From assembly GCF_003946545.1 (NCBI RefSeq), contig NZ_RHOA01000002.1, positions 1 to 64,000 on the forward strand: DNA of 64,000 nt, read 5' to 3'. Positions 45,197 through 49,201 of the stretch are shown here, in pieces (within the stretch, counting starts at the first letter, position 1; each line of letters opens with the position of its first letter). A model generated the notes under the pieces. It did not search any database. It was not told the origin of the DNA and was given only the letters and a program-made list of their open reading frames with translations. The stretch is from Levilactobacillus tangyuanensis (GTDB taxonomy: Bacteria; Bacillota; Bacilli; Lactobacillales; Lactobacillaceae). The translations under genes and the position numbers were made by a program.

Positions 45197-46711
45197 TTAG
45201 CCTTGATGGACCACCAGTGGTGGCAACTCTGGGAATAATTCCCGTAGCCGTTGTTCCGGATGGCGACCACGCATCTCCTTGTCCTGCAGAATCTGCGTGA
45301 TGCCATCGTAAGTAAACATCAGCAGATCGCCCTCAGACCCATCGCTAATTTCATAGAACCGCACGCCGGCTTGAATGGCCGCCATCACGAATCGCTGGGT
45401 GTGATCATTCAACATGGTCAATCGGGGTAAAAGTGGTTTCGTCGTCCGCCGCTCAAGCGTCCACGTATTCGCAACGTCCGCACCAAATGCCATCAGGCTG
45501 CCATCTTTCATTTGGGCGACCAATTTGGCCGCCGGCGTCAGCTCGGGACGAACTAGGCGTTGTTCCAAGTCGTCCAGCACGGCCCCATCCACCGGATTAC
45601 CTAAATGGTCCAACATTTCCCGCATCTCCAGGAATAGTGCCTGACCTTCCGCCAGGAACGCCGTTGGCCGATCCGGTGCCTCCAAAGCGACCAGTTGATT
45701 TCGCTCTTGCGCCGCCGTCAACGTGGTCGTTAACCCCTGATTGGATAATGGCTTTGTGAGCAGATAAGCGAGAAAGATTTTCAGAAAACGCAACCCCTGC
45801 TGACTCACCCCGTCCGGAGCAAATGGCGAATTATCAAAATTACGCAACTCAAGGTAGCGGACGCCGCCCATCAAGAAATCTCGTTCGTTCGCCTGCCCCC
45901 GTAGCCGAACCGGGCCATAAAATTCCTGAGTTGAGGCAAACGTCCCATTATCAATATTCCGCTGCAAGTGTGTCAGATAACTGGCCAGTGAAGCGTAGGT
46001 CACCCGCTCCTGGGCGCGATTGACCCGTCCATAGGGGCTATTTAAAATGCTGCGAACTGGCCGGCGTAATGGTGCCGGAACGGTGTCAAAGAACCCCTCT
46101 TCGGCAATCGGACTGGCCCCAAACAAGTAGGTAATCAACCATTGGTAGCGCACGTAATTTTGGGCCAGGCGGAAGTATAAGGCATTCTTGAATGCTACTA
46201 ACGAATGAAACTCCTCGGTATAGTGGAAATAGAGCCGATGAATCACTGGATCGGGCAAGCGAAAGTTCACGTGAACGGCGGTTAAGCAGCCCTGGGTCAC
46301 GCCATACTTTTCCATTAAATAGGGCTTAATTGCCGCTTCAGCCGACCAATGAGTATCCCCCATAATCTGTTGCCGATCATCCTCAGACAGCCGTGGTGGC
46401 ATGCTGAGCGGCCAAATACGGTCGGCTGGGTCCAGGGAACGATACAAGACCGTCTGCAAGGTTGCCAGATCATCCAGGTTTTCCGCGACCGTGGCCGCAG
46501 AATCGGTACTCACGACCACTTGCATATCGGCGTAACGCGTCTGAAAATACGGGTGCAAAGCGGGCGCGCCCAGCACCTCCGGATGCGGTTCCCGGCTTAG
46601 CCGACCAGCCCGATCTACCCGTCGTTCTTCAACGTTAAAACTCATTAAACTATGAAATAATTGTGTCGCTAAATCTTCATCATGAATAATCCCAAGTAAG
46701 TTATCTAACAT
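45197..46711 (-). CDS. Divergent glutamate-cysteine ligase (GshA) family protein
   Basis: A 504-residue protein of the GshA/GshAB N-terminal family (gamma-glutamylcysteine synthetase fold). Family segments are EFYGPVRLRGQ (about 260) and GVRYLELRNFDNSPFAPDGVS (about 278-298). But the usual GLExE is NVEERRV (near residue 26) and TDFSESQxE is TRYADMQVVV (near 60), so several active-site acids of classical GshA are altered. No C-terminal ATP-grasp glutathione synthetase domain is present. It may ligate another amine to glutamate, or be inactive. ATG 46711 follows GGGGGAGG; the longer frame to 46780 is not used. Confidence 0.82.
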   Translation of the reverse strand: MLDNLLGIIHDEDLATQLFHSLMSFNVEERRVDRAGRLSREPHPEVLGAPALHPYFQTRYADMQVVVSTDSAATVAENLDDLATLQTVLYRSLDPADRIWPLSMPPRLSEDDRQQIMGDTHWSAEAAIKPYLMEKYGVTQGCLTAVHVNFRLPDPVIHRLYFHYTEEFHSLVAFKNALYFRLAQNYVRYQWLITYLFGASPIAEEGFFDTVPAPLRRPVRSILNSPYGRVNRAQERVTYASLASYLTHLQRNIDNGTFASTQEFYGPVRLRGQANERDFLMGGVRYLELRNFDNSPFAPDGVSQQGLRFLKIFLAYLLTKPLSNQGLTTTLTAAQERNQLVALEAPDRPTAFLAEGQALFLEMREMLDHLGNPVDGAVLDDLEQRLVRPELTPAAKLVAQMKDGSLMAFGADVANTWTLERRTTKPLLPRLTMLNDHTQRFVMAAIQAGVRFYEISDGSEGDLLMFTYDGITQILQDKEMRGRHPEQRLRELFPELPPLVVHQG

Positions 46712-46866
46712 CTCTAGGACCTCCCCCAAAGTCTTGAGTCGCTTAAACTCACCCCAGATTTTACCCACTTTCGCCCCCACTGTCAGGCACTAAGCACAGA
46801 ATTAGACGAACTTCTGGTCATTATCTGGGGCCGGCTTGGCGCATGAACTAATTAACTAACGGCATA

Positions 46867-46894
46867 GAAAAAGCCCTGGGAAAATTCCCAGGAC
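46867..46894 (-). terminator. Terminator of the XRE regulator gene
   Basis: CCTGGG/CCCAGG stem with AATTTT loop, then a T-run on the minus strand, about 65 bases after the stop. Confidence 0.85.
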
Positions 46895-46957
46895 TCATGT
46901 CGAATAATCTGTTTTATTAGCCGGACCAGCCCGGACCCCATTGACGCGTTATCTTGC

Positions 46958-47203
46958 TTACTCTTCGGCCGCTCGCTGCCGCAGCAAACGAATAAACTCG
47001 TTTTTATTCCCAAAAAAGAGGTTATCTTTAGGAATTTGATAGAGCTGCGATAGCCGTTCGATCGTTTGAAATCCTAAATCAGAACTGTCTTTTTCCCAGG
47101 CAGCTAAGGTTTGGTAATGAATGCCTAGATGGGCAGCCGCCTCTTTTTGAGAATAGCCAGCATTGTGGCGAGCGGCGTCAAGTGTAATTTGAAGTCGATC
47201 CAT
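46958..47203 (-). CDS. Small XRE-family regulator, probably autoregulated
   Basis: An 81-residue protein that is almost entirely an XRE helix-turn-helix domain (SQKEAAAHLGIHYQTLAAWEKD, about 18-39) plus a short tail NEFIRLLRQRAAEE. ATG 47203 follows GAGGAGGTG. The promoter has a perfect inverted repeat in its spacer, and the same 18 bases recur in the 3' end of the coding region (46986-47003, encoding NEFIRL). Divergent from a second XRE gene. No phage, toxin or peptide gene lies beside it, so its targets are unknown. Confidence 0.88.
   Translation of the reverse strand: MDRLQITLDAARHNAGYSQKEAAAHLGIHYQTLAAWEKDSSDLGFQTIERLSQLYQIPKDNLFFGNKNEFIRLLRQRAAEE
46986..47003. repeat. Intragenic exact copy of the XRE operator
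   Basis: AAACGAATAAACTCGTTT on the plus strand is the exact reverse complement of 47237-47254. It holds the inverted repeat AAACGA-N6-TCGTTT. Centre-to-centre distance is 251 bases. Confidence 0.85.
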
Positions 47204-47231
47204 GACGCACACCTCCTCATAGCACTTAAGT

Positions 47232-47260
47232 ATCATAAACGAGTTTATTCGTTTTGCCAA
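47232..47260 (-). promoter_or_regulatory. XRE gene promoter with inverted-repeat operator in the spacer
   Basis: On the minus strand, TTGGCA (47255-47260), 17 bases, TATGAT (47232-47237). The spacer and the adjoining base hold AAACGA-N6-TCGTTT (47237-47254), a perfect 6-bp inverted repeat, probably bound by the regulator itself. Confidence 0.8.
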
Positions 47261-47357
47261 TAAAGCATTAAGGCGGTGTCCTTTCGTTCGATTTGCTTGT
47301 GTCCAATCGATTCGTTATAATGACGACAGCAGGTATCTTTATGAAGGAGTGAGTGTG

Positions 47358-47726
47358 GTGCCCCGCCATGAATTATCCCCGTTTGAACGTAACATTCGTC
47401 GAATCATTGCTCAGAACCTTAAGATTGCTTGCCAAGGCATGACACAGAATGACTTGGCGGTTAGGACTGGAATCCCCAACTCGACGTTATCCGGCTACTT
47501 CGCCGAACGGTCGACACCGAGTCCCGGTAATGTCCAAAAGATTGCCAATGCGCTGGGCATTCATAAGTCTGACATTGACCCGCGCTTTGGTCACAGTGAA
47601 CTCGCTAATGATGCCTGTCTCCAGGCGGCCTTTGGTCAATTAAGCGATAACCGGCAGCTCGCCGTCATTCGCTATGCTGAAAACCAGTTGCAACGACAAC
47701 GTTCCGACAATCTGCATCAACCTTAA
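47358..47726 (+). CDS. XRE-family regulator, Cro/CI-like, 122 residues
   Basis: An XRE helix-turn-helix protein: MTQNDLAVRTGIPNSTLSGYFAERSTPSPGNVQKIANALGI (about 28-68; shown in part) is the DNA-binding domain, followed by a short C-terminal region without the peptidase part of CI repressors. GTG 47358 is chosen because AAGGAG is eight bases upstream; GTG 47355 and 47349 are alternatives. The promoter is TTGCTT-17-TATAAT. Divergent from the other XRE gene; targets unknown. Confidence 0.85.
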   Translation: MPRHELSPFERNIRRIIAQNLKIACQGMTQNDLAVRTGIPNSTLSGYFAERSTPSPGNVQKIANALGIHKSDIDPRFGHSELANDACLQAAFGQLSDNRQLAVIRYAENQLQRQRSDNLHQP

Positions 47727-47734
47727 CCCAACCA

Positions 47735-47770
47735 AAAAGGAGCCATGACATCCGTCATGGCTCCTTTCAT
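47735..47770. terminator. Bidirectional terminator between the XRE gene and rlmD
   Basis: A 14-bp stem AAAGGAGCCATGAC with its complement, loop ATCC, flanked by A and T tracts; serves the plus-strand XRE gene and can serve rlmD on the minus strand. Confidence 0.88.
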
Positions 47771-47833
47771 TTCGACTTATTTTCCGACCACGTGACGTGG
47801 ACGGCGGTCCTCGTCACATGACTGGTCACTAAA

Positions 47834-49201
47834 TTACTTTTTAACCAGGACCGTCACACTTTCAACGTGTGGCGTTTGTGGGAACTGGTCAACGGGTTGA
47901 ACTGGGCCGTCAATCTCATAGCCCAATTCATTGAAACGAGCCACGTCACGAACCAAAGTAGATGGGTTGCAACTGACATAGACCACTTTCTTAGGCCCCA
48001 TCTTAGTGGCACTTTCAATCAGACTGTCAGCCAGACCCTTACGTGGTGGATCGACGACAATGACATCCGGCTTCACGCCGGCAGCTTGCCACGTTGCCAT
48101 CTGGTCTTCGGCCTTACCAACCTCAAAGGTGACATTGGTCAAATGGTTCTTCTGTGCATTGACCTTAGCATCCTCGATGGCCTCGGGCACGATTTCTACC
48201 CCATAGACTTGAGCCGCATGCTTAGCCAAGGCTAAGGAAATGGTCCCAATCCCACAGTAGGCATCGATAACGGTTTCTTTACCAGTCAATTCTGCCTTGT
48301 CGATAGCCATTTGGTAAAGCTTTTCGGTTTGTTGAGGGTTCACTTGGTAGAATGACCGTGCCGAAATGGCGAAGGTCAGTCCTAACAGTTCGTCCTCAAT
48401 CGTTGGCTTACCATAGAGCACCCGCGTCACGTTACCCATGATCACATTGGTCTTCTTGGCGTTAACGTTCAAGATGATGCTGGTAACTTCTGGCAAGGCC
48501 TTGTGGATCTGGTCAACCAGTTGTGCCTGACTAGGAATCTTCTGTTGCCGACTGATCAACACAATCATCATCTCATGGCTGTAGTAGCCCCGACGAACCA
48601 TGACGTTACGGATAACACCCTTGTCATTGATTTCATCATACGCGGGAATTTCAAATTGGCGTAACAGGTCACGAACCTTCACGATGGCCGTATCAATGGC
48701 TGGATCCTGAATGTAGAAGTCCGTTAGCGGAATCAATTCGTGGCTGTGTTGCCGGTAAAAACCCGTCTCTAGTTGACCTTTAACCTTGCGGACGGGAACC
48801 TGTGCCTTGTTCCGGTATTGCGTTGGGTTGGCCATCCCTAAGGTTGGGGCAACTGTGACGTCTTGATGAGCCTTGTTGAAGAGCTCTTCCAATTGATGTT
48901 GTTTAAACTTTAATTGGGCTGGGTAGGCCAAATGTTGCAGAGGGGCAATCCCGGTTTGCCGGTATGTCTTGTCGATATCGACCACCCGATCCGCAGATTC
49001 AACGGACCACTTGGTGACCCGAGCGAAACCGTAATGCTTCTGTACCTTAGTGACTTGGACGGTGACTTCTTCACCAGGTAAGGCATTCTCGATGAACAAT
49101 GGAAAATCGTCCACCTTGGCCACACCTAACCCTTGGTAGGTCAGGTCCATAATCTTAACGTCTAACTGCTCATTCTTTGCTACTGGTGCTTTAATTTTCA
49201 T
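47834..49201 (-). CDS. rlmD: 23S rRNA (uracil-C5)-methyltransferase, RlmD/RlmCD family
   Basis: A 455-residue SAM-dependent methyltransferase that makes 5-methyluridine in 23S rRNA (RlmCD can modify U747 and U1939). An N-terminal TRAM domain (about 10-65) precedes the catalytic domain with IDAYCGIGTISLALAK (about 310), DPPRKGL (about 390) and the catalytic cysteine in VYVSCNPSTLVRD (about 420). The Fe-S cluster cysteines of E. coli RlmD are absent, as in Firmicutes. ATG 49201 follows GAGG; a longer frame is not used. Last gene of the gat-dagK-rlmD run. Confidence 0.94.
   Translation of the reverse strand: MKIKAPVAKNEQLDVKIMDLTYQGLGVAKVDDFPLFIENALPGEEVTVQVTKVQKHYGFARVTKWSVESADRVVDIDKTYRQTGIAPLQHLAYPAQLKFKQHQLEELFNKAHQDVTVAPTLGMANPTQYRNKAQVPVRKVKGQLETGFYRQHSHELIPLTDFYIQDPAIDTAIVKVRDLLRQFEIPAYDEINDKGVIRNVMVRRGYYSHEMMIVLISRQQKIPSQAQLVDQIHKALPEVTSIILNVNAKKTNVIMGNVTRVLYGKPTIEDELLGLTFAISARSFYQVNPQQTEKLYQMAIDKAELTGKETVIDAYCGIGTISLALAKHAAQVYGVEIVPEAIEDAKVNAQKNHLTNVTFEVGKAEDQMATWQAAGVKPDVIVVDPPRKGLADSLIESATKMGPKKVVYVSCNPSTLVRDVARFNELGYEIDGPVQPVDQFPQTPHVESVTVLVKK

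What the first reader, a model, noticed from the sequence alone, without database searches (positions are those of the whole stretch)
46986..47260. XRE regulator operator is duplicated exactly inside the 3' end of its own gene
The promoter of the small XRE gene carries AAACGA-N6-TCGTTT at 47237-47254, in the spacer of TTGGCA-17-TATGAT. The same 18 bases, including the six non-repeated middle bases, recur in reverse orientation at 46986-47003 inside the gene, where they encode NEFIRL. An exact 18-base match this close is very unlikely by chance. The centres are 251 bases apart, close to 24 DNA turns, which would suit two repressor dimers looping across the gene or an intragenic roadblock. Intragenic auxiliary operators are known in lac- and gal-type systems; for a solitary 81-residue XRE protein this would be unusual.
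Basis: partly seen in the sequence, partly recalled or inferred. Interest (0 to 1): 0.78.

Follow-up and report, generated by a model that had tools for sequence, protein, structure and literature searches.

The report
Phage-switch operator repeated inside cro gene
The repeated 18-base sequence is real and is most likely a pair of repressor binding sites of a small virus-type on/off switch in a Lactobacillus-type chromosome, one site in the promoter and one inside the gene, an arrangement already known from related bacterial viruses.

Summary
In detail: 47237-47254 and 46986-47003 are exact inverted copies, beyond chance. The gene is not solitary. It is the Cro/MOR-like half of a two-gene phage-type switch in Levilactobacillus; the divergent gene 47358-47726 is a CI-type repressor. 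In relatives the promoter operator recurs near the end of the cro-like gene and the two copies change together: 31 of 42 loci outside the chromosomal clade share 14 or more of 16 bases there, against 1 of 42 and 0 of 42 in control stretches; 0 of 20,000 re-pairings matched the true pairing. Codons in the site are strongly biased. This is the published 'distal operator' OD of TP901-1-type switches (PMC7250872); its spacing there, 248 by my reading, is close to the 251 here. Special here: the switch stands alone in the chromosome, on one contig with a trmA-like gene in 16 of 17 carriers (the 17th cannot be told); its CI stops before the multimerisation domain; OD was lost in one clade of seven species. 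Roadblock versus loop is unresolved; helical phasing is not conserved.

The parts
47237..47254 (-). OL-type operator in the spacer of the cro promoter
   Evidence: exact palindromic half-sites; conserved within 1 mismatch of 10 in 13 of 15 named chromosomal loci
46986..47003 (-). OD-type operator, exact inverted copy of the promoter operator, inside the 3' end of the cro gene (codons NEFIRL)
   Evidence: perfect half-sites in 8 of 15 named chromosomal loci; exact or near copies in phage relatives
46958..47203 (-). 81-residue XRE gene, Cro/MOR-like lytic regulator half of the switch
   Evidence: HTH_3; relatives annotated as phage Cro, e.g. BK5-T and EJ-1; model mean pLDDT 91.4
47358..47726 (+). 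divergent 122-residue CI-type repressor: HTH domain plus a C-terminal helical stretch resembling the TP901-1 dimerisation hook; no multimerisation domain
   Evidence: the start at 47358 (GTG) is my choice from the ribosome-binding site and relatives; an ORF start at 47349 is also listed
47232..47260 (-). promoter of the cro-like gene (TTGGCA-17-TATGAT)
47293..47321 (+). candidate promoter of the divergent repressor gene (TTGCTT-17-TATAAT), with only a half-site TCGTT (47312-47316) where many phage relatives have a further operator
   Evidence: read by eye; not reported by the scan; phage sites
46871..46896 (-). terminator-like hairpin after the cro-like gene, so the gene is probably transcribed alone
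   Evidence: 2 terminator-like sites found, shuffle mean 1.2
47012..47017 (-). T6 tract (T8 in most phage relatives with OD) just upstream of OD on the coding strand
   Evidence: role unknown

Best explanation
The two 18-mers are the promoter operator (OL) and the distal operator (OD) of a phage-type CI/Cro (CI/MOR) genetic switch that now stands alone in the Levilactobacillus chromosome. Shown by sequence: a two-gene divergent switch homologous to phage switches; the operator pair; covariation of the pair across relatives; loss of OD in one clade. Inferred: the CI-type repressor, probably also the Cro-like protein, binds both sites as a dimer. Binding at OL shuts the cro promoter. Binding at OD, about 250 bp further on and inside the gene, adds a second brake on cro expression. 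In phages with a multimerising CI this is probably a joint multi-operator complex, as proposed for TP901-1. In this chromosomal version, whose CI ends after the dimerisation hook, I think OD works mainly as an obstacle to elongating RNA polymerase (about 45% for the obstacle, 30% for a loop or joint complex, the rest relic or other). Because OD lies in codons, the operator also dictates residues near the end of the Cro-like protein, and these differ between operator classes.
For: Exact pair, none in shuffles. 18 of 35 Levilactobacillus genomes carry the gene. A divergent homologue of the CI-type gene in 33 of 36 loci examined, some of them the same element fetched twice. Own promoter versus own gene end (plus 40 nt): mean 14.4 of 16, at least 14 in 31 of 42; 5' part of the gene 1 of 42; downstream stretch 0 of 42. 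Re-pairing test 0 of 20,000. Codons inside OD in 26 loci: Asn AAC 16 of 17 versus 40 of 116 elsewhere, Arg CGT 15 of 17 versus 14 of 105. In BK5-T the three annotated operators find their best match in the sequence fetched downstream at one place, in the 3' end of cro (13, 13 and 14 of 18). TP901-1 has a third CI operator in the distal part of mor (PMC7250872, passages and Introduction); its OL-OD spacing by my reading is 248. phi13 CI binds OD in vitro (PMC8516035, passages). The CI-type protein aligns with TP901-1 CI residues 32-126 (hhalign probability 90%). Both genes show low dN/dS in the chromosomal clade (medians 0.05 and 0.13 on 25 and 22 usable pairs of 78 each).
Against: No binding has been measured for these proteins. 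Seven of 17 chromosomal copies have lost OD while keeping OL, so OD is dispensable at least there. Lambda CI, lambda Cro and 186 CI are poor roadblocks, though looping strengthens lambda CI as one (PMC10310618, passages); this counts against the obstacle step. In some relatives the distal site spans or follows the stop codon (TP901-1; Javan490, L074, L091, L076), so non-stop mRNA cannot be the general purpose. 11 of 42 loci show no copy by the test (one of them, BK5-T, does); the 31 is a count by score, and a few (L071, L076, L079) have their best match outside the expected place or in A-rich sequence. Only 10 of 54 loci fall at or below 2 of 200 codon shuffles (window 2 of 200), because the amino acids themselves already carry much of the operator. 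In the chromosomal clade the Asn codon bias is not significant (AAC 7 of 7 versus 23 of 37, p 0.08).
Confidence: 0.75

Rival explanations
1. OL and OD are held together by a repressor-mediated DNA loop or joint complex, as proposed for the hexameric TP901-1 CI; the gene body is the loop.
For: TP901-1 model of a hexameric wheel around which DNA loops (PMC4941734, passages); OL-OD spacing is similar in 18 loci of the AACGA class, mean 251, SD 9.
Against: No helical phasing (p 0.23-0.44); the window CI ends where TP901-1 CI begins its multimerisation domain (domain limits from PMC7250872), and the truncated TP901-1 CI of 122 residues forms dimers; other operator classes show other spacings, and in BK5-T the sites lie 789 bp apart.
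Confidence: 0.3
2. OD is a relic: inherited from the phage ancestor and not used in the chromosomal copy.
For: OD is lost in one clade of seven species, all of which keep OL; 15 of 15 named chromosomal loci show no further operator within 1 mismatch of 10 between the genes.
Against: In the chromosomal clade Arg codons inside the site are CGT 7 of 7 versus 15 of 59 elsewhere (p 0.0002; rows are related, and the Asn bias is not significant); in two species OL is degraded while OD has perfect half-sites.
Confidence: 0.2
3. The match is a by-product of a conserved protein motif (NEFIR) that happens to spell the operator.
For: NEFIR is conserved in protein and the codon-shuffle null is high (mean 13.2 of 16 for the window).
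Against: The peptide differs between operator classes (NEFIR, YEFIR, DELIR, NAFS); codons are biased inside the site; TP901-1 and some relatives have the site across or after the stop codon.
Confidence: 0.03

Closest known systems
TP901-1 CI/MOR switch (and phi13), operators OR, OL, OD
   Same: Divergent CI and small HTH gene; OL over the lytic promoter; [quoted passage not shown] OL-OD 248 bp by my reading versus 251 here
   Different: Operator sequence differs (AGTTCAYR half-sites); OD there spans the mor stop codon by my reading; TP901-1 CI has a multimerisation domain; it is in a phage; whether TP901-1 MOR is homologous to this 81-residue protein was not tested
BK5-T cI/Cro region
   Same: Homologous Cro (39% identity); a place resembling the annotated operators (13-14 of 18) in the 3' end of cro
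   Different: Operator class CCGA-TCGG; an extra ORF separates promoter and cro, so the distance is 789 bp
C.Kpn2I controller protein
   Same: Small regulator with its binding site inside its own ORF, acting as elongation roadblock (PMC6237814, abstract and passages)
   Different: Site in the initial transcribed part of the gene and not at the end; belongs to a restriction-modification system; its site is not upstream of its own promoters
LacI-O3 auxiliary operator
   Same: Auxiliary operator in the 3' end of the repressor gene (recalled, not from a call)
   Different: Tetrameric LacI loop and a catabolic operon; unrelated protein family (recalled)

Membership tests
TP901-1-type CI/MOR three-operator phage switch | divergent CI-type repressor gene and small HTH lytic regulator gene | tested here: met
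TP901-1-type CI/MOR three-operator phage switch | operator overlapping the lytic promoter (OL) and distal operator in the small gene (OD) | tested here: met
   (by sequence; binding not tested)
TP901-1-type CI/MOR three-operator phage switch | central operator OR at the divergent promoters | tested here: not met
   no site within 1 mismatch of 10 there in 15 of 15 chromosomal loci; only a half-site in the window. 3 of 16 phage loci also show only two sites
TP901-1-type CI/MOR three-operator phage switch | CI with HTH domain and helical hook | tested here: met
   hhalign 90%, E 1.5e-6 to TP901-1 CI 32-126; helices 86-93 and 97-119 in the model, mean pLDDT 85
TP901-1-type CI/MOR three-operator phage switch | CI C-terminal multimerisation domain (residues 122-180) | tested here: not met
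   protein ends at 122 residues; 117-122 residues in 13 chromosomal loci
TP901-1-type CI/MOR three-operator phage switch | CI:MOR protein complex and bistability | not testable with these tools
   needs purified proteins and reporter strains
Phage Cro family (BK5-T, EJ-1) | sequence homology to annotated phage Cro | tested here: met
   (142 phage records with a match, all under 60% identity; 60 were listed)
Prophage | neighbouring integrase, replication or structural phage genes | tested here: not met
   five window neighbours are amino acid permease, glutamate-cysteine ligase, uracil-5 methyltransferase, diacylglycerol kinase, GatB; in five relatives, read by eye, no phage genes were recognised (one has an ORF that I read as a transposase)
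Elongation roadblock autoregulator (C.Kpn2I type) | bound regulator stalls RNA polymerase in its own gene | not testable with these tools
   needs transcription assays

The most novel reading that the evidence does not exclude
Levilactobacillus has domesticated a phage decision switch as a minimal two-gene, two-operator device. The intragenic operator is now used by a dimer-only CI as a roadblock in the lytic gene, next to a conserved T tract that weakens the stalled transcription complex. The chromosomal CI, whose operator sequence is shared with phages, gives immunity to them.
Probability: 0.2. Interest if true: 0.68.

Novelty: new variant of a known kind. Interest (0 to 1): 0.5.

Why it matters
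It turns a curious repeat into a clean case of overlapping information: a DNA operator and codons near the end of a protein of the same switch are written in the same bases, and they differ together across phages with different operator sequences. The chromosomal clade offers a natural experiment on the role of the distal operator, since OD was lost in one clade and kept elsewhere. It also flags a phage-type repressor kept in chromosomes beside an operator sequence that occurs in phage contigs, which is testable for immunity.

Tried and rejected
Rejected: chance repeat; pure protein-motif by-product; prophage location of the window copy; strict helical phasing. Not supported: a wide regulon. 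Of the 7 other AACGA-N6-TCGTT places in the genome, 4 were looked at (three, one): three lie in coding sequence, one between genes. The gpsB-like one recurs unchanged in six of six relatives, as a conserved coding stretch would.

Led nowhere: Rfam search of 46500-48000, no match at gathering scores; PDB sequence and fold searches gave general XRE folds, and I saw no TP901-1 CI structure among the rows listed; EJ-1 showed no copy by my test. Literature searches in the open-licence library led to the TP901-1/phi13 topology; among the titles and abstract starts listed I saw no report of the Levilactobacillus switch. The older TP901-1 operator papers were seen only as references (one, tried, is not held), so this does not show absence from print.

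Rows dropped and limits of the counts: searches used named loci; L066 (L. andaensis, frameshifted gene whose site is intact in L020, the same genome) was left out of all three, and one search used 13 of the 15 others (L055 and L057 left out). In one search, 99 loci were tried, L095 was dropped as too short, and loci with 97% or more identical genes (ungapped comparison) were collapsed to 54; the 12 chromosomal ones were left out, leaving 42. Loci fetched after one search are not in those counts. In one search two of the 28 loci counted as having OD lacked the IFF-type motif and dropped out, leaving 26. The permutation is not corrected for relatedness. The 18 spacings were picked by me, all of the AACGA class, some from close kin; over 36 loci of all classes the offsets between best-matching 16-mers, which are not always OL, range from 228 to 324. 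In one search, L034 is scored 'no OD' at 1 mismatch of 12 although it has a copy with more mismatches (missed because the window there was 75 bases).

Full report
1. The observation. AAACGAGTTTATTCGTTT lies at 47237-47254 and its exact reverse complement at 46986-47003. The pattern AAACGA-N6-TCGTTT occurs at these two places only in the window and in none of 100 shuffles. In the 2.19 Mb genome there is one more place, with another centre, in the last codons of a gene that I read as gpsB. The gene 46958-47203 encodes 81 residues with an HTH_3 domain. Its promoter and a terminator-like hairpin at 46896-46871 flank it, so it is probably a single-gene transcript.

2. It is not solitary. The window comes from a Levilactobacillus; the nearest named relative is L. 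senmaizukei, 99% identical in this protein. The divergent gene 47358-47726 encodes 122 residues and has a homologue, divergent to the XRE gene, in 33 of 36 loci examined (some loci are one element fetched from two collections). In 31 loci read (3 of them chromosomal) the divergent ORF looks by eye like an HTH repressor in all but L044, many with a long C-terminal part that I read as a peptidase domain. The XRE gene has relatives in 142 phage records, among them annotated Cro repressors of BK5-T and EJ-1, and in 23 of 397 genomes of the family at E 1e-10 or better. So the window holds a CI/Cro (or CI/MOR) type switch.

3. The operator pair is a family trait. In 15 of the 20 first phage loci, a 16-mer from the promoter region recurs with 14 or more matches in the last 75 bases of the cro-like gene (L034 makes 16 when a longer stretch is used), even where the operator has another sequence (for example CGCTAAAAGCG; in other loci TTCGAATTAATTCG). 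Across 42 loci outside the chromosomal clade, the best shared 16-mer between promoter region and gene end (plus 40 nt) has 14 or more matches in 31 of 42, against 1 of 42 for the 5' part of the gene and 0 of 42 for a downstream stretch (Wilcoxon p 2.9e-7 for gene end versus 5' part). This counts scores, and a few of the 31 (L071, L076, L079) have their best match off the expected place or in A-rich sequence. Swapping promoters and gene ends among loci never reached the observed mean in 20,000 permutations (14.05 observed; permuted mean 12.6, maximum 13.3). The loci are related, so this is not a corrected probability, but the separation between operator classes is plain in the same call. In BK5-T each of the three annotated operators finds its best match in the downstream sequence fetched at one and the same place, in the 3' end of cro, with 13, 13 and 14 of 18 bases. 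A stricter null, shuffling synonymous codons, is reached by the window in 2 of 200 shuffles, and only 10 of 54 loci fall at or below that, because the amino acids themselves carry much of the site.

4. Codons. In 26 non-Levilactobacillus loci with a copy, Asn in the site is AAC in 16 of 17 cases (40 of 116 elsewhere in the same genes) and Arg is CGT in 15 of 17 (14 of 105 elsewhere). In the chromosomal clade Arg is CGT in 7 of 7 (15 of 59 elsewhere, p 0.0002), while the Asn bias is not significant (7 of 7 versus 23 of 37). Glu, whose third base lies in the non-repeated centre, varies (GAG 12, GAA 5). The site therefore appears to be kept as DNA. The peptide it spells, residues 68-73, lies at the start of the last helix of the modelled protein, residues 67-80.

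5. Position. In several relatives the distal site spans the stop codon or lies just after it (TP901-1, by my reading; satellite Javan490, Gemella L074, L091, L076). Lying inside codons is thus not essential. Within the AACGA class the distance from OL is 238-271 bp in 18 loci, mean 251, SD 9, without helical phasing. TP901-1 gives 248 by my reading of its sites. Other classes differ, and BK5-T has 789 bp.

6. The chromosomal version. 18 of 35 Levilactobacillus genomes have the gene. The G019 copy has the sequence of a viral contig and lies far from trmA. Of the 17 others, 16 have it on the same contig and strand as the trmA-like gene, 0.6-24 kb away; for G009 the contigs do not tell. Five neighbours in the window are ordinary chromosomal genes, and in five relatives I recognised no phage genes (read by eye). 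Both genes are under purifying selection by a rough measure (dS is near saturation, so only 25 and 22 of 78 pairs were usable). Of 16 phage loci, 13 show three or four operators within 1 mismatch of 10 and 3 show two. In 15 named chromosomal loci there is never a further site between the genes, 13 of 15 keep OL and 8 of 15 keep OD with perfect half-sites, and in two species OD is perfect while OL is degraded. On the tree the seven species without OD form one clade, so one loss explains them. By the 17 genomes the count is 10 with and 7 without (sequences).

7. How it works. The literature describes three CI operators in TP901-1, with OD in the distal part of mor, and says that the topology appears to be shared by many lactococcal and streptococcal phages with other operator sequences (PMC7250872, passages and Introduction). 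phi13 CI binds OD in vitro (PMC8516035, passages). TP901-1 MOR binds the CI N-terminal domain and hardly binds DNA itself (PMC11149083, passages; PMC7250872), so which protein occupies OD here is open. In TP901-1 the full CI is a hexamer and a looped complex has been proposed, while a 122-residue truncation forms dimers (PMC4941734, passages). The window CI aligns with TP901-1 CI up to residue 126 and then ends, so it looks like a natural dimer-only CI. That favours independent binding at OL and OD, with OD hindering RNA polymerase within the gene; a precedent for a small regulator acting so is C.Kpn2I (PMC6237814, abstract and passages). Against it, lambda and 186 phage repressors are poor roadblocks, though a loop strengthens lambda CI (PMC10310618, passages). 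I therefore hold the identity firmly (a phage-type OL/OD pair) and the mechanism loosely.

8. Novelty. The topology is known. I saw no account of the stand-alone Levilactobacillus switch, of its short CI, or of the operator-peptide covariation in the listings of the searches made, which cover open-licence papers only. I file it as a new variant of a known kind.

Noticed in passing
window 47012-47017 (coding strand T6); most phage relatives: The codons for IFF just before the distal operator form a T8 tract in 21 of 26 loci with OD; Ile there is ATT in 23 of 23 cases against 74 of 133 elsewhere. But a T7 or T8 tract is also found in 8 of 11 loci without a detected OD (Ile ATT 9 of 10), so it is not tied to OD. 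Unexplained.
   Followed up: partly
L020 / L066 (L. andaensis): The T tract is one base shorter than in the nearest relatives and the reading frame shifts there, so the end of the cro-like protein is changed while the operator bases remain.
   Followed up: no
L125, around 1501 (G000:C1:235491): A near-operator AAACGATTTTATTCGTTC, identical to the OD of several relatives, lies between genes upstream of an ORF that I read as a MarR-type regulator; possible further target or chance.
   Followed up: partly
window 45197-46780: A glutamate-cysteine ligase homologue (PF04262) that scores below the cut-offs of the three NCBIfam models it matches lies downstream of the switch here and in L. senmaizukei, but was not found in the fetched flanks of the 14 other named Levilactobacillus loci.
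   Followed up: no
Viral-contig loci L112-L124: The exact 18-base operator of the window promoter occurs in 13 IMG/VR stretches; 12 of the 13 hold a cro-like gene and at least one further copy nearby, so phage or prophage contigs share the operator of the chromosomal switch.
   Followed up: partly
G019 (L021): The one Levilactobacillus genome in which this cro type was found far from trmA, with the sequence of a viral contig, shows no second copy; compatible with immunity, but a single case.
   Followed up: no
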